A stretch of DNA of 64,000 bases from contig NZ_JACHIG010000001.1 of assembly GCF_014203095.1 (NCBI RefSeq), positions 1,116,001 to 1,180,000 on the forward strand. The letters run 5' to 3'. This DNA is from Prosthecobacter vanneervenii. GTDB lineage: Bacteria; Verrucomicrobiota; Verrucomicrobiia; Verrucomicrobiales; Verrucomicrobiaceae. The notes under the pieces were generated by a model. That model was given only the letters and a program-made list of their open reading frames with translations. It ran no database searches and had not been told where the DNA came from. A program made the position numbers and the translations under genes. Shown one piece after another: positions 28,251 to 46,048 of the stretch. Within the stretch, counting starts at the first letter, position 1. Every line of letters starts with the position of its first letter.

Positions 28251-28313
28251 GAAGCGAAGCGGAGACAGACGACTGAAAGGAGCCCGTAGGGTGAGCGCAG
28301 CGAATCAATCAAT
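28251..28313. repeat. R3 direct repeat, copy 1
   Basis: Core GACGACTGAAAGGAGCCCG followed by TAGGGTGAGCGCAGCG and AATCAATCA. It ends at the left end of R1 copy c. Confidence 0.85.
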
Positions 28314-28525
28314 GCGGTCGCGCAGATGCGAGGCGCATGCCTGCATCGGAGCTACCGCTTTCGAGCGTCTCGCGGTGGGCGTGGGATCATCGGCACGCGA
28401 ATGCCCTGGACCTCACGAGAGCCGCAGAGAGGCTGCCTGTGGGTATCTTGTGGTATCAGCCAGCCGTCCCGCCTCCGGAAAGCGGCAGCTGCGGTCGTTC
28501 CTCCCTCCGCGACCGCACTCCATAT
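28311..28525. repeat. R1 palindromic element, copy c
   Basis: About 215 bp. Left TGCGGTCGCGCAGATGCGAGG, inner GAGCTACCGCTTTCG, right GGAAAGCGGCAGCTGC and CGCGACCGCACTCCAT. The left outer arm has lost TTTGGAG at the R3 junction, so the element is fused to R3. Confidence 0.85.
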
Positions 28526-28551
28526 CCTGCTGCGAAAGCGCAAAGACGAAC

Positions 28552-28617
28552 TTGGAACCGAAGCGGAGACAGACGACTGAAAGGAGCCCGTAGGGTGAGC
28601 GCAGCGAATCAATCAAT
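28552..28617. repeat. R3 direct repeat, copy 2
   Basis: Same core as 28251-28313, preceded by TTGGAACCGAAGCGGAGAC. It again leads directly into an R1 element. Confidence 0.85.
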
Positions 28618-28828
28618 GCGGTCGCGCAGATGCACGGCGCAAGCCTGCATCGGAGCTACCGCTTTCGAGCGTCTCGCGGTGGGCGTGGGATCGTCGGCAC
28701 GCGAGTGCCTTGGACCTCACGAGAACCGCAGAGAGGCTGCCTGTGGGTATCTTGTGATATCAGCCAGCCATCTCGCCCACGGAAAGCGGTAGCTGCGGTC
28801 GTTCCTCCCTCCGCGACCGCACTCCATA
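28615..28828. repeat. R1 palindromic element, copy d
   Basis: Nearly the same as copy c, with the middle TCTTGTGATATCAGCCAGCC. Copies c and d form a tandem R3-R1-R3-R1 array 3' of the amidohydrolase. Confidence 0.85.
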
Positions 28829-28874
28829 TCCTGCTGCGAAAGCGCGAAGGCGGCCTGCGGAGCCGAACGAATCA

Positions 28875-36659: not shown

Positions 36660-38183
36660 ATGACTGACACCCCCACCGGCAAGGCCGACATGAAACTCTT
36701 CTGGGCCTGCTTCATCGCCCTGGTCGCCACCTCGTTTGTCTTTGGCGTGCGCGCCGCCACCATCGGCGAGCTGCAGAGCAGCTTTAACCTCTCCGAGTCC
36801 GAGAAGTCCCTGATCAATGGCGCGGGCATGTGGCCCTTTGCGCTGAGCATCATCTTCTTCAGCCTGATCATCGACCGCGTGGGCTACAAGCTGGTGGCGC
36901 TGTTTGCCGCCGCCTGCCATGTGGTGTCTCTGGTGCTCACACTCAAAGCCTCGGGCTTTTACAGCTTTTACCTCAGCTCCCTGCTCGTGGCCGTGGCCAA
37001 TGGCACGGTGGAGTCCTTCATCAATCCGGTGGTGGCCACCGCCTTCAGCCACAACAAATCCAAATGGCTGAACATCCTGCACGCCGGATGGCCCGCAGGC
37101 ATGGCGCTGGGTGCGCTCTTCTGCGCGCTGCTGCCAGATACCAAGCTCTTCTTCTCCGCCGTGTGGCAGTTCCGCTTTGCGCTGTGCTTCATCCCCGTGG
37201 TGCTCTACACCCTGCTCATCCTGCCGCGCAGCTTCCCGGTGAATGAGCGCGTGGCCGCCGGCGTGAGCTACCGGGACATGCTCAAGGAAGTGGGCGCGGT
37301 GGGCTTCTTCATCATCGGCACCTTCACCTACTGCGCCGTGGTGCAGCTGCTGGGGTATGAGGCCTCCCTGCTGGCCTCCGTGGCCGCAGGCGTGGCGCTG
37401 GGTGTGGCCGCTGGCGTGTACACCGGGGCGCTGGGAAACTGGCTCTTCATCATCGTGCTCATCACCATCGGGCCGCTGGCCACCACCGAGCTGGGCACCG
37501 ACGGCTGGATGCCCGAGCTGCTGAAGCTCAGCGGGCCTGACATCCCGAACTTTGGCACCTGGGTGTTTGTGTATGTGTCCGTGCTCATGACCGTGATGCG
37601 CTTCTACGCAGGCCCCATCGTGCATCGGTTCTCGCCCATCGGGCTGCTCGTCATCAGCGCGGCCATCGCCATCACCGGGCTGGTGTTTCTCTCCAATTCC
37701 GTCGGCTGGGTCATCCTGGCCGCAGCCACCGTCTATGCGCTGGGCAAGACCTTCCTGTGGAGCACCACCCTGGGCCTGACTGCCGAGCAGTTTCCCAAAG
37801 GCGGCGCGCTGACTCTCAATGGCGTCTCCGCCGTGGGCGTGCTCTTCCTGGGCGTGCTGGGCGGCCCCTACATCGGCCACAAGCAGGACCACGACATGGA
37901 CCACCGCCTCTCCGCCCCGGCCCACACCGCGCTCTACGCGCAGATCAAAGGAGAGCCCAAAGCAGGCATCTTTGGCAGCGCCCCCACGCTCAATCAGGAG
38001 AAGATCAAAGCCCTGAGCGACCCCCAGCGCCAGGAGCTGGAAACCGTGCAGGCCGCCAGCAAACGCAGCGTCTTCACCACCATCGCCATCCTCCCCAGCT
38101 TCATGCTGGTGTGCTACCTCGGCATGTTCCTCTGGTTCAAGGCCAGAGGCGGCTACAAGCCCGTGGCGATCGCGGATCATTGA
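36660..38183 (+). CDS. MFS transporter (sugar/organic-acid type)
   Basis: A 507-residue major-facilitator protein with about 12 helices (LFWACFIALVATSFVFGVR, then LINGAGMWPFALSIIFFSLIIDRVGYKLVALFAAA with the loop 2-3 signature-like DRVGYK). It is probably a sugar or metabolite transporter, not assignable further. The start at ATG 36660 is the first in a plausible N-terminus. The last 99 bases, coding for AILPSFMLVCYLGMFLWFK and the rest of the tail, are repeated at 40436-40534 beyond a restriction-modification operon. The gene remains complete, but its tail is duplicated. Confidence 0.85.
   Translation: MTDTPTGKADMKLFWACFIALVATSFVFGVRAATIGELQSSFNLSESEKSLINGAGMWPFALSIIFFSLIIDRVGYKLVALFAAACHVVSLVLTLKASGFYSFYLSSLLVAVANGTVESFINPVVATAFSHNKSKWLNILHAGWPAGMALGALFCALLPDTKLFFSAVWQFRFALCFIPVVLYTLLILPRSFPVNERVAAGVSYRDMLKEVGAVGFFIIGTFTYCAVVQLLGYEASLLASVAAGVALGVAAGVYTGALGNWLFIIVLITIGPLATTELGTDGWMPELLKLSGPDIPNFGTWVFVYVSVLMTVMRFYAGPIVHRFSPIGLLVISAAIAITGLVFLSNSVGWVILAAATVYALGKTFLWSTTLGLTAEQFPKGGALTLNGVSAVGVLFLGVLGGPYIGHKQDHDMDHRLSAPAHTALYAQIKGEPKAGIFGSAPTLNQEKIKALSDPQRQELETVQAASKRSVFTTIAILPSFMLVCYLGMFLWFKARGGYKPVAIADH
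38085..38183. repeat. 99-bp direct repeat, left copy (3' end of the MFS gene)
   Basis: Matches 40436-40534 with six mismatches (about 94 percent). Three mismatches are silent; the others change Ala-Arg to Ser-Lys before GGYKPVAIADH. It ends at the MFS stop. Confidence 0.92.
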
Positions 38184-38296
38184 TGGGGGTTGCGCGCCCA
38201 ATCTCCATTCACCATCAATCTGTCATGCAACCCACGGGACAAGTCTAGCGGGCTTCTTCATAGCGGCATTCAAGATCAGATGTTGTCACATGCCGC

Positions 38297-38311
38297 ATCC
38301 TGCATCAGGAT
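38297..38311 (+). promoter_or_regulatory. Hairpin that holds the methyltransferase Shine-Dalgarno
   Basis: ATCCTG and CAGGAT pair perfectly around CAT. AGGA (38307-38310), seven bases before the ATG at 38318, is the only SD-like sequence and is within the right arm of the stem. The stem could also be a DNA operator. Confidence 0.5.
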
Positions 38312-38317
38312 CGCCGC

Positions 38318-39502
38318 ATGCCGAAACGCGTTGCTGAATTTTTTGCCGGAATAGGGCTCATGAGGATGGGGCTGGACAGGGAAGGCTGGACCACAGTCTG
38401 GGCGAATGATCTTGATGAAAAGAAGCAGGAAATGTACGAACACAACTTCAGCAACAAAGATTGCGAATTTGTGCTTGAGGATGTGCATAAAATCGACAGC
38501 AAAGACATTCCGGACATTGAATTGGCAACCGCCTCGTTTCCCTGTAACGATCTGTCATTGGCAGGAGCCAGACACGGTCTTGCTGGAAGCAACTCCTCGG
38601 CTTTTTGGGGCTTTATTGCATCAATCAAGGGCATGGGTAAACGTCGCCCACCCCTGGTGCTTTTGGAGAATGTTGCAGGATTCTTGACGTCAAACAATGG
38701 CAATGACTTCCGCGATGCGCTGCTGGCCTTAAATGATTTGGGATACGCAGTTGATGCTTTCATTCTGGACGCAGTGAGGTTCGTGCCACAGAGTCGCGTA
38801 CGTCTGTTTGTTGTTGGCAGCAAAGCAAAAGCCACAAGAGTCCAGGAAGCCTCCTTAGCACTGCTGCAAAGTGATGTACGTCCTCCTGCCCTAGCTGACT
38901 TCATTTTTATGAACCCTGACATCGGCTGGTCAGTTCGAAGCTTGCCATCACTTCCACCAGCAAACAACCATCTGGCAGATATTATCGAGGATGTGCCCCT
39001 CAACTCGGAATTATGGTGGTCAAAGGAGCGCTGCGAATACCTTCTGAATCAGATGAGCGACAAGCATCTCGCGGAGGCAAAGCGTATGATTGCTGGCTCA
39101 AAGCTTTCATATGGCACAGTCTTCAGACGTGTGCGAAATGGGCGATCCATGGGTGAACTTCGCACCGATGGCATAGCAGGCTGCCTTAGAACGCCTCGCG
39201 GCGGAAGCGGCCGTCAAATTTTATTCTGTGCAGGAAAAGGTCAGTATCGGGTAAGGCTTCTCACACCTCTTGAGTGCGCACGCCTCATGGGTGCTAATGG
39301 CTACAAGATAAATGTCCCGCTCAATCAGGCGCTTTTCGGCTTTGGGGATGCCGTCTGCGTTCCAGCCGTGCAGTGGATTGCCAGCAATTACCTCAATCCG
39401 TTGCTGGACGAAATGATGCATACCCCAATGCCTTTGCCATCAGCCAGAAAACAAGTCCATTACACTGCCGCAGGACGACGGATAACGAAATCGAAAGCAT
39501 GA
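38318..39502 (+). CDS. DNA (cytosine-5-)-methyltransferase of a type II restriction-modification system
   Basis: A 394-residue C5 methyltransferase. Motif I FFAGIGLMRMGL binds SAM; motif IV SFPCNDLSLAG holds the catalytic Cys; motif VI is LLENVAGF; motif VIII QSRVRLFVVG; motif IX-X RLLTPLECARLMG and FGDAVCVPAVQWI. The target-recognition region lies at about 220-320. It protects host DNA from the nuclease encoded next, with which it overlaps by ATGA. Codon use is lower in G+C than the MFS neighbour. The operon lies between two copies of the MFS gene end, indicating acquisition. Confidence 0.95.
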   Translation: MPKRVAEFFAGIGLMRMGLDREGWTTVWANDLDEKKQEMYEHNFSNKDCEFVLEDVHKIDSKDIPDIELATASFPCNDLSLAGARHGLAGSNSSAFWGFIASIKGMGKRRPPLVLLENVAGFLTSNNGNDFRDALLALNDLGYAVDAFILDAVRFVPQSRVRLFVVGSKAKATRVQEASLALLQSDVRPPALADFIFMNPDIGWSVRSLPSLPPANNHLADIIEDVPLNSELWWSKERCEYLLNQMSDKHLAEAKRMIAGSKLSYGTVFRRVRNGRSMGELRTDGIAGCLRTPRGGSGRQILFCAGKGQYRVRLLTPLECARLMGANGYKINVPLNQALFGFGDAVCVPAVQWIASNYLNPLLDEMMHTPMPLPSARKQVHYTAAGRRITKSKA

Positions 39503-40431
39503 GTGAACTTGTCAGCACATTGGAGCAGCTCGCATCAGGCCAGCGCAAATTCCTGAACAAAGGTGGATTATGCGTCGGCTTGGTTATCACCAAAACAGCG
39601 CAAGAAAGAGGCCTTCCCATCGCCCCTGAATCTCTGCGAACAGAAGAGGGTGGACAGGTTGCTGGCCTTGGGAAGGCAGCCGTACAAAATATACTTGCCG
39701 ACTACGGCATCACAAAAGTCCTGGCTGAAGAAGGTGGTAGAACAAGCCGAGGCAGCCTTGGATTGATGGAAAGTTATGTCAAAACACTCAACGAGCTGCA
39801 TGCAAAGCTGAGAGATATTGACTTGGACATAGCCATGAACTGGTGGATCGAGAAGGTAAAGTTATACCTGGCCAGCGAAGGCCCCAAGTTCAATTTTGAC
39901 ACCAGCAAGTCAGTCGCCGCCAATCTTGCCGACATTTTTGTTCAGGCGATGGAGATTCAGAAGAATTCAGGCGGGGCGAACTTTGTCGGAGCCATGCTTC
40001 AGCATATGGTTGGAGCCAAGCTGGACATCGTCTTGGGACAGGGAGCCGTCTCACACCACGGGTTTTCTGTCGCAGACCACTCCACAGACAGAGCCGCTGA
40101 TTTTCAAGTCAATGAAGTGGCAATCCATGTAACAACGCACCCTTCAGAAGCACTGATTAGGAAGGCAGCCGCCAATCTCAGAACGGGACTAAAGCCGCTG
40201 ATCGTAACGCTTGCTGACGGAGTTGAAGGAGCAGCATACCTGCTCAAAAACACCGAATGGAAAGACCGTATTGACGTGATTGATGCCGCCCAATTTCTCA
40301 CGGCAAACGTCTATGAACGCAGCCTGTTCAAGGCCGTTGAATGCAAGACCACCCTTGTCAGCATTTTAACCCGCTACAACGAGATCGTTGCAGAATGTGA
40401 AACCGATCCAGTTTTGCGCATTCGCTTGTAA
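39499..40431 (+). CDS. Probable restriction endonuclease (DUF4928-like) partner of the methyltransferase
   Basis: A 310-residue protein overlapping the methyltransferase stop by ATGA, the usual coupling in type II restriction-modification operons. It resembles the DUF4928 family seen beside cytosine methyltransferases. A possible PD-(D/E)XK-like core is AKLDIVLGQGAVSHHGFSVAD, then DFQVNEVAIHVTTHP, but the catalytic Asp/Glu/Lys cannot be fixed by eye. The start at ATG 39499 fits the overlap; the open frame back to 39373 is shadow of the methyltransferase. G+C is low like its partner. Its stop is four bases before the right copy of the MFS repeat. Confidence 0.8.
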   Translation: MSELVSTLEQLASGQRKFLNKGGLCVGLVITKTAQERGLPIAPESLRTEEGGQVAGLGKAAVQNILADYGITKVLAEEGGRTSRGSLGLMESYVKTLNELHAKLRDIDLDIAMNWWIEKVKLYLASEGPKFNFDTSKSVAANLADIFVQAMEIQKNSGGANFVGAMLQHMVGAKLDIVLGQGAVSHHGFSVADHSTDRAADFQVNEVAIHVTTHPSEALIRKAAANLRTGLKPLIVTLADGVEGAAYLLKNTEWKDRIDVIDAAQFLTANVYERSLFKAVECKTTLVSILTRYNEIVAECETDPVLRIRL

Positions 40432-40435
40432 AAAC

Positions 40436-40534
40436 GCCATCCTCCCCAGCTTCATGCTCGTCTGCTACCTCGGCATGTTCCTCTGGTTCAAGTCCAAGGG
40501 CGGCTACAAGCCCGTGGCGATTGCGGATCATTGA
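40436..40534 (+). pseudogene. Duplicated 3' end of the MFS gene (right direct repeat)
   Basis: Reads AILPSFMLVCYLGMFLWFK then SKGGYKPVAIADH and a stop in the same frame as the original. It has no start of its own. It is the distal repeat of the restriction-modification insertion and, by parsimony, may be the original end of the MFS gene. Confidence 0.9.
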
Positions 40535-40588
40535 GGGGGGGGAGACTCCGCTTTCACGTGCCACCTTCTCCCCCTCCATCCCCCGTGC

Positions 40589-41198: not shown

Positions 41199-41375
41199 GA
41201 GAAACTTCTCCATCTTCTCCAATTTCTCCGCAGGGGTATGCACATCGAGGCATGGGCTATCGGAGAAACTTCTCCAACTTCTCCAATTTCTCCGCAGGGG
41301 TATGCACACCTTGGCGTGGGCTATCGGAGAAACTTCTCCAATTTCTCCAACTTCTCCGCAGGGGTATGCACACGC
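41199..41375. repeat. 64-bp tandem repeat, three units, between lipoprotein and DUF3987 genes
   Basis: Units start at 41199, 41263 and 41327. Each begins GAGAAACTTCTCC (a GGAGAA/TTCTCC palindrome), continues with two or three 9-base CAACTTCTC-type units, and ends CGCAGGGGTATGCACA. The same motifs occur, in inverted orientation, inside the DUF3987 gene at 42709-43113. Together with flanking bases this accounts for the 385-base gap, which holds no gene. Confidence 0.88.
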
Positions 41376-41406
41376 ACCGCGACCTGCGGTGCGTGCGGGC
41401 CTGGCA

Positions 41407-43452
41407 TCAGTCCCAGGTGAAGGTGTAGGTGATGCGCTTGCCCACTTTGGAGCGGATGCAGCACTGGCCTTTCTCGATGAGACGGGGAAGGATCTCGCCG
41501 TAGAGGCGGGAGGCGGTGAGGGCGCCACGGCGGCCGCCATGAAGGGCGTAGCGGCGGGTGAGATCGCTGCGGACGATGTCAGCGCTCCTCTGCCCTGGGT
41601 GGTCTCCGCTGATCTGCGCCAGCAGCCACTCGGCGGTGTCCTCCACCTCACAGCGGCCGCTGGTGGCCTCCAGCTCCACCAGCGAGTCGAGGCAGGCATT
41701 TTGGTGTGCCTCTGCCAACGCCAGCACGTCTGCGGTGATGGTGTAGGGGTCCACACGGTTGTCCCTGGCCCACCGGCAGGCCTGGAAGATGACGGCCAGC
41801 TTGAGACAGCGGGCGGGGCTCTCATTCAGGCTGGATAGCAGACTCTCCTCTTTATCGGTATATCCTGGTATGCTCTCGCAGCGCCTGCGGTTGCGCTGCT
41901 GCAGGCCGCGCCAGTACTCCCAGGCCTCCGGCGTAAAGCTCTGCCGGCCGACCACGCCCTTGAGGTGGGTCAGCTCCTCAAACAGGCCCGCCAGGTGGGC
42001 GATCTCGGGGCCGTTGAGGGTTTCCGGCCAGTCGAGATAGCGCTCCCGGTGGCTGGAGAGGTAGAAGCCAAAGCGCCGCCGCAGGCCGCTGCCAGCCTCC
42101 AGCTGGTCCAGCCGTGCCACCCCAAAGGTGCTGCCAATGCACAGGCTCAGCGTGGCCTGCGAGATGCTGCGCTCGGCGCTGCCTTCATCGTGCAGCTTGC
42201 GCTCGCGCAGGTAGTTCTGTGACCACGGTGCGCCATCGTAGAGTTTCAGGTATCTTGCTGAAACTTCGCGCCCATGTGAGCTGGTCTCCCAGGTGCGCAG
42301 GATGGTGTTTCCCTCATCCTCAAACTGCAACCGGTGCGGCTGCACCTCAAAGCTGTCAAACAGCGCAGAGTCACTGGCATTGCCGTAGAGGAGATCGCAG
42401 TCCATCAGGATCTTGCGCGCGATCTTTTCCGCCGGAGCAAAGGTGGTGCTCTTGCGCAGGCCAGAAGGTGTGGTGACGAAGTTGTAGATCGTCAGCGGCT
42501 TGGTGCCGCCAAAGTCCAGCGTGACGTGTGGCGTGAGCAGCCTGCCGCACAGTGCCAGCACTGGTGCGATGATGAGGCCATCTGGCAGCTCTGACACCTG
42601 GCGCACAAAATCTCGATAGTCTGCCAGGATGGAATCCTCTGGGATGGGATGCTCGCGCATTTTTCCATCCGTGGGAATGAGGGAGGGCTCGTCGCTGGCT
42701 GGCGGCGGGTGTGCATACCCCTGCGGAGAAGTTGGAGAAGTTGGAGAAGTTGGAGAAGTTTCTCCGCTGGTGACCTGCACCGGGCTTTCTACCGAGGGCG
42801 TACATCCTGCGCTGGGCAGCGGCGGCTGGGGGACCAGCCGCCCTACCTGCGCTGCGTGTGCATACCCCTGCGGAGAAGTTGGAGAAATTGGAGAAGTTTC
42901 TCCGCTGGTGACCTGCACCGGGCTTTCTACCGAGGGCGTGCATCCTGCGCTGGGCAGCGGCGGCTGGGGGACCAGCCGCCCTACCTGCACTGCGTGTGTA
43001 CACCCCTGCGGAGAAATTGGAGAAGTTGGAGAAGTTTCTCCACCGACAGTCTGTGTATGCGTACATCCCCCCGGAGAAGTTGGAGAAGTTGGAGAAGTTG
43101 CGGAAGTTTCTCCATCAGCATGGGGCGCGGCGGCAGGGCGGGCGCGCAGGTGGGACCAGTCGGCGGAGGGGCGGAAGGCGGGCAGGGCCATCAGCGCGGC
43201 GGTGTCGGCCGAGTGGGTGACGGGCGCAGTCTCCGGCGTGTGGGCCGGAGGCGGTGCCGCACTGGAGGCGGAGGCCGCTGTCTCATCCGGCACAGCCGGG
43301 GATGAAGCAGCGGATGCAGCCGAAGCCGCCGCTGCAGGTGCAGGTGCGGGCTTTATGGAAAAGAGGTCTTTGGTGGTATCAGGTGTGTAGTTCTGGTATT
43401 TCATGGCATCGTTGGTCTTGAATGTTCTGGGTGAGGATGGGCGTGATTTCAT
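41407..43452 (-). CDS. DUF3987-type (primase/helicase-like) protein with an internal repeat region
   Basis: A 681-residue protein resembling the DUF3987 group common in genomic islands and phage-like elements. The C-terminal 460 residues carry the family pattern (SELPDGLIIAPVLALCGRLL, then FVTTPSGLRKSTTFAPAEKI, a Walker-A-like GLRKST, and FGVARLDQLEAGSGLRRRFGFYL). Residues about 115-230 are built of repeats: TSP units from a 9-base repeat, and VGRLVPQPPLP from R2 hairpins. Its ATG overlaps the stop of the Toprim gene as ATGA, which supports the start at 43452 over an inner ATG at 43404. Likely role: replication of a mobile element; the enzymatic activity is inferred. Confidence 0.75.
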   Translation of the reverse strand: MKSRPSSPRTFKTNDAMKYQNYTPDTTKDLFSIKPAPAPAAAASAASAASSPAVPDETAASASSAAPPPAHTPETAPVTHSADTAALMALPAFRPSADWSHLRARPAAAPHADGETSATSPTSPTSPGGCTHTQTVGGETSPTSPISPQGCTHAVQVGRLVPQPPLPSAGCTPSVESPVQVTSGETSPISPTSPQGYAHAAQVGRLVPQPPLPSAGCTPSVESPVQVTSGETSPTSPTSPTSPQGYAHPPPASDEPSLIPTDGKMREHPIPEDSILADYRDFVRQVSELPDGLIIAPVLALCGRLLTPHVTLDFGGTKPLTIYNFVTTPSGLRKSTTFAPAEKIARKILMDCDLLYGNASDSALFDSFEVQPHRLQFEDEGNTILRTWETSSHGREVSARYLKLYDGAPWSQNYLRERKLHDEGSAERSISQATLSLCIGSTFGVARLDQLEAGSGLRRRFGFYLSSHRERYLDWPETLNGPEIAHLAGLFEELTHLKGVVGRQSFTPEAWEYWRGLQQRNRRRCESIPGYTDKEESLLSSLNESPARCLKLAVIFQACRWARDNRVDPYTITADVLALAEAHQNACLDSLVELEATSGRCEVEDTAEWLLAQISGDHPGQRSADIVRSDLTRRYALHGGRRGALTASRLYGEILPRLIEKGQCCIRSKVGKRITYTFTWD
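42709..43113. repeat. In-frame minisatellite inside the DUF3987 gene
   Basis: Four blocks (starts near 42709, 42856, 42994 and 43053) of GGAGAAGTT units, 3-4 per block, each ending GGAGAAGTTTCTCC (the last has a GCGGAAG variant). Spacings of 147 and 138 bases differ by one 9-base unit. Between blocks lie R2 hairpins (stems 42821-42842 and 42959-42980, loop GGGA). All stay in frame. Confidence 0.88.
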
Positions 43453-45220: not shown

Positions 45221-45293
45221 TTTGGAACCGAAGCGAAGCGGAGACAGACGACTGAAAGGAGCCCGTAGGGTGAGCGCAGCGAATCAATCAATG
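45221..45293. repeat. R3 direct repeat, copy 3
   Basis: Begins TTTGGAACCGAAGCGAAGC; the core is the same as in 28251-28313 and 28552-28617. It again runs straight into an R1 element. Confidence 0.85.
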
Positions 45294-45504
45294 CGGTCGC
45301 GCAGATGCGAGGCGCAGGCCTGCATCGGAGCTACCGCTTTCGGGCGTCTCGTGGTCTGCGGGGGCTGATTGGCACGCGGATGCCATAAACCTCGCGGGAG
45401 ACGCAGAGATGCTGCCTGAGGGTATCTTATGGTATGCGACAGCCGTCCCGCCTCCGGAAAGCGGTAGCTGCGGTCGTGCCTCCCTCCGCGACCGCACTCC
45501 AAAT
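45290..45504. repeat. R1 palindromic element, copy f (tandem unit 1)
   Basis: Contains GAGCTACCGCTTTCGGGCG and, to the right, GAAAGCGGTAGCTGCGG and CGCGACCGCACTCCAAAT. The left outer arm is joined to R3, as in copies c and d. Confidence 0.9.
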
Positions 45505-45526
45505 TCACTGCGCGTGCTGCGGCGCT

Positions 45527-45747
45527 ATTTGGAGTGCGGTCGCGCAGATGCGAGGCGCAAGCCTGCATCGGAGCTACCGCTTTCGGGCGTCTCGTGGTCT
45601 GCGGGGGCTGATTGGCACGCGGGTGCCATAAACCTCGCGGGAGACGGAGAGATGCTGCCTGAGGGTATCTTGTGGTATCAGCCAGCCGTCCCGCCTGCGG
45701 AAAGCGGTAGCTGCGGTCGTCCCTCCCTCCGCGACCGCACTCCAAAT
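45527..45747. repeat. R1 palindromic element, copy g (tandem unit 2)
   Basis: A complete 221-base unit from ATTTGGAGTGCGGTCGCG to CGACCGCACTCCAAAT. Linker CACTGCGCGTGCTGCGGCG joins it to units on both sides. Confidence 0.92.
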
Positions 45748-45769
45748 TCACTGCGCGTGCTGCGGCGCT

Positions 45770-45990
45770 ATTTGGAGTGCGGTCGCGCAGATGCGAGGCG
45801 CAGGCCTGCATCGGAGCTACCGCTTTCGGGCGTCTCGTGGTCTGCGGGGGCTGATTGGCACGCGGATGCCATTAACCTCGCGGGAGACGCAGAGATGCTG
45901 CCTGAGGGTATCTTGTGGTATGCGACAGCCGTCCCGCCTCCGGAAAGCGGTAGCTGCGGTCGTTCCTCCCTCCGCGACCGCACTCCAAAT
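45770..45990. repeat. R1 palindromic element, copy h (tandem unit 3)
   Basis: A complete 221-base unit that differs from copy g at few positions. The period between units g and h is 243 bases. Confidence 0.92.
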
Positions 45991-46048
45991 AGCGTGGCAT
46001 TGCTCCTGCGGAGTGCTGCGGGCTCGGAGGCCCGTGCTCCAAAGACTC

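What the first reader, a model, noticed from the sequence alone, without database searches (positions are those of the whole stretch)
38085..40534. Restriction-modification operon flanked by a duplicated MFS gene end
The last 99 bases of the MFS gene recur immediately after the endonuclease gene, in frame, including the stop. Three of the six mismatches are silent and three change two adjacent codons (Ala-Arg to Ser-Lys), so the two copies have been under coding constraint. The operon is lower in G+C than its flanks. Recombination between repeats would remove the operon and leave an intact transporter, so gain and loss should be reversible.
Basis: partly seen in the sequence, partly recalled or inferred. 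Interest (0 to 1): 0.8.

Follow-up and report, generated by a model that had tools for sequence, protein, structure and literature searches.

The report
DNA-cutting defence pair beside transporter gene
A two-gene bacterial defence system has inserted itself at the very end of a transporter gene and duplicated that gene's last 106 bases so the gene stays whole; the same kind of defence pair did the same thing at an unrelated essential gene (gyrA) in a distant relative, which fits a known but poorly understood way such systems move.

Summary
A 106-nt direct repeat (93%; 99 coding nt with 6 mismatches, then six more bases) at 38084-38189 and 40435-40540 flanks a C5-methyltransferase plus DUF4928 endonuclease operon of lower G+C (about 51% against 60-67%). 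No other place in the genome matches it, and no searched congener has the RM pair here.

In another family of the class (G087), a homologous pair (72%/68% identical) lies at the 3' end of gyrA. There, 73 nt of gyrA (97%) recur 2 nt after the endonuclease stop, and a congener (G270) shows the uninterrupted site, collinear on both sides. In both cases the two copies share bases absent from the compared relatives, so the host's own sequence was duplicated. No integrase or transposase is present. [quoted passage not shown]

Reversible excision is possible by geometry but untested: exact stretches are at most 30 nt. Only 2 of 18 intact homologous loci show such repeats. New member of a known kind, with a good natural experiment (gyrA filled and empty sites).

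The parts
36660..38183 (+). MFS transporter gene (507 aa), the insertion target; its 3' end is intact
   Evidence: PF07690; orthologues 68-86% identical in congeners
38084..38189 (+). left copy of the 106-nt target duplication (MFS 3' end, stop and 6 nt)
38190..38317 (+). unique leader of the inserted unit, including a TTGTCA box about 35 nt before the methyltransferase start that is also seen in homologous units of G001 and G026
38318..39502 (+). C5-cytosine DNA methyltransferase (394 aa)
   Evidence: PF00145, TIGR00675, PADLOC MTase_II
39499..40431 (+). DUF4928 protein, predicted Type II restriction endonuclease (310 aa), overlapping the methyltransferase by 4 nt
   Evidence: PF16280, PADLOC REase_II; next to a C5-methyltransferase in the intact homologous loci
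40435..40540 (+). right copy of the target duplication (displaced MFS 3' end, no start codon), 3 nt after the endonuclease stop

Best explanation
A Type II RM pair (C5-methyltransferase plus DUF4928 endonuclease) arrived by horizontal transfer and was inserted just after the 3' end of an MFS gene by 'insertion with long target duplication'. Original: A-X-B, where X is the last 100 nt or so of the gene including the stop. Product: A-X-[RM]-X-B. Because X holds the end of the reading frame, the transporter stays whole and the second X is a non-expressed remnant. Shown: the structure, absence of the RM pair at this site in congeners, independent recurrence at gyrA with an empty site, and a common right end of the unit at the endonuclease stop. 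Inferred: the joining chemistry, most likely non-homologous joining or replication template switching that re-enters the host about 100 nt upstream of where it left. No integrase or transposase of its own is visible. Survival is filtered by selection for an intact target gene.
For: Repeat and its uniqueness. MFS orthologues without the RM pair. Homologous RM pair in G087 between two 73-nt copies (97%) of the gyrA 3' end, the right copy starting 2 nt after the endonuclease stop. G270 is the empty site: gyrA 95.8% identical up to the repeat, then 94.8% and 93.8% collinear beyond it, with tail and flank TAAATCCGCC matching G087's right copy. In G087 both copies share GAAGAGGTC where G270 has GAGGAAGCC. 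In the window both copies share TTCCTCTGG and the GCGAT(C/T)GCGGAT stretch, absent from the seven closest orthologues. Both therefore come from the host's own sequence. Left-right divergence is 0.063 against 0.385 at fourfold sites to the nearest congener: insertion after that split. Sequence beyond the endonuclease stop is unrelated among ten homologous units (25% identity), so the unit ends there. PMC3874152 states that some RM systems insert with long, variable target duplications in the order of 100 bp; also PMC3031569 and PMC1643837.
Against: No empty site is sequenced for the window itself: the right flank (BamE-like gene) was not found next to MFS in any relative. Of the five polarisable mismatches, four are derived in the left copy and one in the right, the opposite of what a free-drifting right copy predicts, though not significant. 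Only 2 of 18 intact homologous RM loci have such repeats. The left end of the unit is not conserved (128 against 37 nt before the methyltransferase).
Confidence: 0.72

Rival explanations
1. Import by homologous recombination on one side and illegitimate joining on the other (homology-facilitated illegitimate recombination). DNA from a closely related strain that already carried the RM pair next to its MFS gene recombined in MFS, so the left tail is the donor's and the right tail is the host's.
For: Four of five polarisable differences are derived in the left copy, while the right copy looks native. The mechanism is described in bacteria (PMC3240628, title and abstract).
Against: Both copies share bases unknown in other orthologues, so any donor would have to be a close unsampled relative. 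In G087 the gyrA body stays 97-100% G270-like right up to the repeat, with no foreign tract. It does not explain how the first donor got the arrangement.
Confidence: 0.15
2. Site-specific integration at a gene 3' end, as for phages and integrative elements that carry a replacement gene end, with the integrase supplied in trans or since lost.
For: The target is a gene 3' end in both cases, the gene is restored, and the right copy looks native.
Against: No integrase match in the 64-kb window; the genome's seven matches lie elsewhere. The two targets share no sequence. Copies derive from the host's own sequence in G087, not from a carried replacement.
Confidence: 0.07
3. Excisable cassette: the repeats recombine often, so the operon flips in and out of the population.
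For: Direct repeats flank the operon, and a crossover anywhere in them would leave an intact MFS gene (sequence).
Against: Exact stretches are only 30, 24 and 23 nt; about 6% divergence has accumulated between the copies without being evened out; no excised allele is seen in the assembly.
Confidence: 0.04

Closest known systems
Insertion of RM systems with long target duplication (Helicobacter pylori 26695/J99; Nobusato et al. 2000; Furuta et al. 2010; cited in PMC3874152, PMC3031569, PMC1643837)
   Same: A bare RM unit inserted between direct repeats in the order of 100 bp made from the target; no transposase; an empty site in a relative (for the gyrA case).
   Different: Different phylum (Verrucomicrobiota). 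RM family is C5-MTase plus DUF4928. Both targets here are gene 3' ends, one of them the essential gyrA. The window's own empty site is missing.
Phage and integrative-element insertion at gene 3' ends with a carried replacement tail (such as phage 21 at icd; from general knowledge)
   Same: Gene 3' end duplicated on both sides of the insert; target gene stays intact.
   Different: No integrase; unrelated targets; in G087 the duplicated piece is the host's own, not a carried diverged tail.
C5-MTase + DUF4928 RM pairs on proteobacterial plasmids (25 PLSDB records, 16 of them conjugative)
   Same: Same kind of two-gene pair (endonuclease about 45% identical).
   Different: Plasmid-borne, whereas this one is a chromosomal insertion.

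Membership tests
Type II restriction-modification system | DNA methyltransferase gene with catalytic family domain | tested here: met
   PF00145 E 1.1e-48; PADLOC MTase_II E 2e-117
Type II restriction-modification system | Adjacent restriction endonuclease | tested here: inconclusive
   PF16280 (DUF4928) E 2.2e-45 and PADLOC REase_II E 7.2e-37; no solved relative; structure model too poor to use (pLDDT 37)
Type II restriction-modification system | Cleavage of unmethylated DNA and protection by the methyltransferase | not testable with these tools
   needs biochemistry or methylome data
RM insertion with long target duplication | Direct repeats in the order of 100 bp at both ends of the inserted unit | tested here: met
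   106 nt, 93%; homologous unit: 73 nt, 97%
RM insertion with long target duplication | Related genome with a single uninterrupted copy (empty site, both flanks collinear) | tested here: inconclusive
   Met for the gyrA case (G270). For the window, single-copy MFS orthologues exist but no relative was found to share the right flank
RM insertion with long target duplication | No mobile-element enzyme needed | tested here: met
   Only the two RM genes lie between the repeats; no integrase match near the locus
Integrase-driven element at a gene 3' end | Integrase encoded by the element | tested here: not met
Integrase-driven element at a gene 3' end | Conserved attachment sequence between targets | tested here: not met
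   MFS tail and gyrA tail are unrelated

The most novel reading that the evidence does not exclude
The C5-MTase/DUF4928 pair is itself a minimal mobile unit with a fixed right end at the endonuclease stop codon. It preferentially enters the 3' ends of genes, where duplication of about 100 nt keeps the target alive, and the endonuclease takes part in its own insertion by cutting the target.
Probability: 0.13. Interest if true: 0.7.

Novelty: new member of a known kind. Interest (0 to 1): 0.42.

Why it matters
How bare RM genes move without a transposase has been open since long target duplications were noticed in Helicobacter. Two independent insertions of one RM family, at unrelated genes in different families of one class, one of them with a filled and an empty site in the same genus at an essential gene, give a comparable pair of junctions. 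They show that the duplicated segment is the host's own sequence, and that the shared part of the unit ends at the endonuclease stop. That makes joining models (template switching, one-sided homologous recombination, endonuclease-assisted insertion) testable on defined junctions.

Tried and rejected
Right copy as remnant of a second MFS gene: rejected, homology stops at 106 nt. Imported tail from another known species: rejected, both copies share bases absent from the compared orthologues. Integrase nearby: none. Empty site for the window: searched through the BamE-like neighbour and the MFS downstream flanks, not found. Closest RM homologues in the same family (G015, G026, G683, G016, G717; endonuclease 72-80%) lie in other surroundings and show no flanking repeat. 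Viral contigs and phages: no relative of the RM genes found; plasmids: no DNA-level match. DUF4928 fold: no solved relative by sequence or profile, single-sequence model useless. Furuta et al. 2010 is not in the library, so its details are taken only from papers citing it.

Full report
Observation. The last 99 coding bases of the MFS gene (stop included), with six further bases and one before, recur 2351 nt downstream: 38084-38189 and 40435-40540, 106 nt, 93% identical, no gaps. The repeat occurs nowhere else in the 6.66-Mb genome. The DNA between the copies has 50-52% G+C, the flanks 60-67%.

Content. Between the repeats lie only a C5-cytosine methyltransferase (38318-39502; PF00145, PADLOC MTase_II) and, overlapping it by 4 nt, a DUF4928 protein (39499-40431; PF16280, PADLOC REase_II). 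DUF4928 has no solved relative, so 'endonuclease' rests on family annotation and on its regular partnership with a methyltransferase. One held paper mentions DUF4928.

Target gene. The window belongs to a Prosthecobacter-like member of the Verrucomicrobiaceae (record titles; 34 congeners). MFS orthologues end like the two copies; G013, the congener with the most similar end, has GISDH* against AIADH* and matches the right copy slightly past the stop. No congener examined has an RM pair at this site. Only G032 also has a second MFS tail, around a different insert.

The second case. Homologues of the RM pair were collected and tested for repeats hugging the unit. In G087, of another family of the class, the pair (72%/68% identical) follows gyrA. 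The gyrA segment LIDLRPGEVLQGIAPVISDEEEVE recurs as LIDLRAGEVLQGIAPVISDEEEVE two nt after the endonuclease stop: 73 nt, 97%. The congener G270 has the uninterrupted site: gyrA 95.8% identical up to the repeat, then 154 nt at 94.8% and 4.6 kb at 93.8% collinear beyond it. Its gyrA end and following bases match G087's right copy. So the right copy is the native end, and one copy plus the RM pair is the insertion. Both G087 copies carry GAAGAGGTC where G270 has GAGGAAGCC, so the duplicated piece is G087's own. gyrA itself now ends in EAPEAQA* instead of EEGKAET*.

Back to the window. The same logic holds: both MFS copies share TTCCTCTGG and the codons around AIADH, unknown in the seven closest orthologues. 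Divergence between copies is 0.063, against 0.385 at fourfold-degenerate sites to the nearest congener, so the insertion is younger than that split. Four of five polarisable differences are derived in the left, expressed copy and one in the right. This is the reverse of free drift of the right copy, but with five sites it is not significant; it leaves room for one-sided import from a close strain.

Unit boundaries. In ten homologous units the sequence after the endonuclease stop is unrelated (25% identity), so the shared unit ends at that stop. Upstream of the methyltransferase only about 40 nt are shared, by some units (TTGTCA box). In the two repeat-flanked cases the right junction lies 3 and 2 nt after the stop. 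The left junctions lie 128 and 37 nt before the methyltransferase. The two targets share no sequence.

Mechanism. PMC3874152 says that some RM systems insert with long and variable target duplications in the order of 100 bp; PMC3031569 and PMC1643837 describe the same. Both cases fit this. The joining chemistry is unknown; I favour non-homologous joining or template switching, with selection keeping only events that leave the gene whole (inference). Integrase-driven insertion is unlikely. One-sided homologous import is the main rival.

Limits. Only 2 of 18 intact homologous loci with both flanks show such repeats: the others may be old, decayed or inserted otherwise. The window's own empty site is missing because its right flank (BamE-like gene) lies elsewhere in relatives. 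Tail duplication may not be specific to RM cargo: G032 and G630 show older, more diverged gene-end duplications around non-RM inserts.

Coding constraint on both copies is not needed to explain the pattern. Excision would leave an intact MFS gene, but the longest exact stretches are 30, 24 and 23 nt and no excised form was seen, so 'reversible' is untested.

Noticed in passing
L054:8053-13521 (G013, same MFS locus): A Type II CRISPR-Cas system (Cas9-like with RuvC_III and HNH_4, Cas1, a short downstream ORF in the cas2 position, 66-nt-spaced repeat array) lies about 500 nt after the stop of the MFS orthologue: the same slot holds different defence systems in two species.
   Followed up: partly
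L058:7410-10761 and L033:1-742 (G032): A second, frame-shifted MFS tail (190 nt, 81%) lies beyond an insert that seems to run through an IS630-like element broken over two contigs: another insertion with tail duplication at the same gene end.
   Followed up: partly
L184:2056-9831 (G630): A decayed 230-nt gyrA tail (84%) lies about 7.4 kb downstream of gyrA, beyond what look like metabolic genes, not RM genes; empty site not found.
   Followed up: partly
L216:4089-5749 and L217:199-2091 (G001, G023): Loci with only the first part of the methyltransferase and the last 187 residues of the DUF4928 protein, about 1 kb apart: similar internal losses in two species, or a different gene arrangement.
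   Followed up: no
window 41199-41390 and 42710-43113: A GGAGAAGTTGGAGAAG-type repeat occurs inside the DUF3987 gene (41407-43452) and, inverted, just beyond its 3' end, with a 138-nt tandem duplication in frame.
   Followed up: no
window 28251-28852 and 45230-46013: Related tandem arrays with units of 304 and 243 nt, 17 kb apart (71-95% identical to the reference copy).
   Followed up: no
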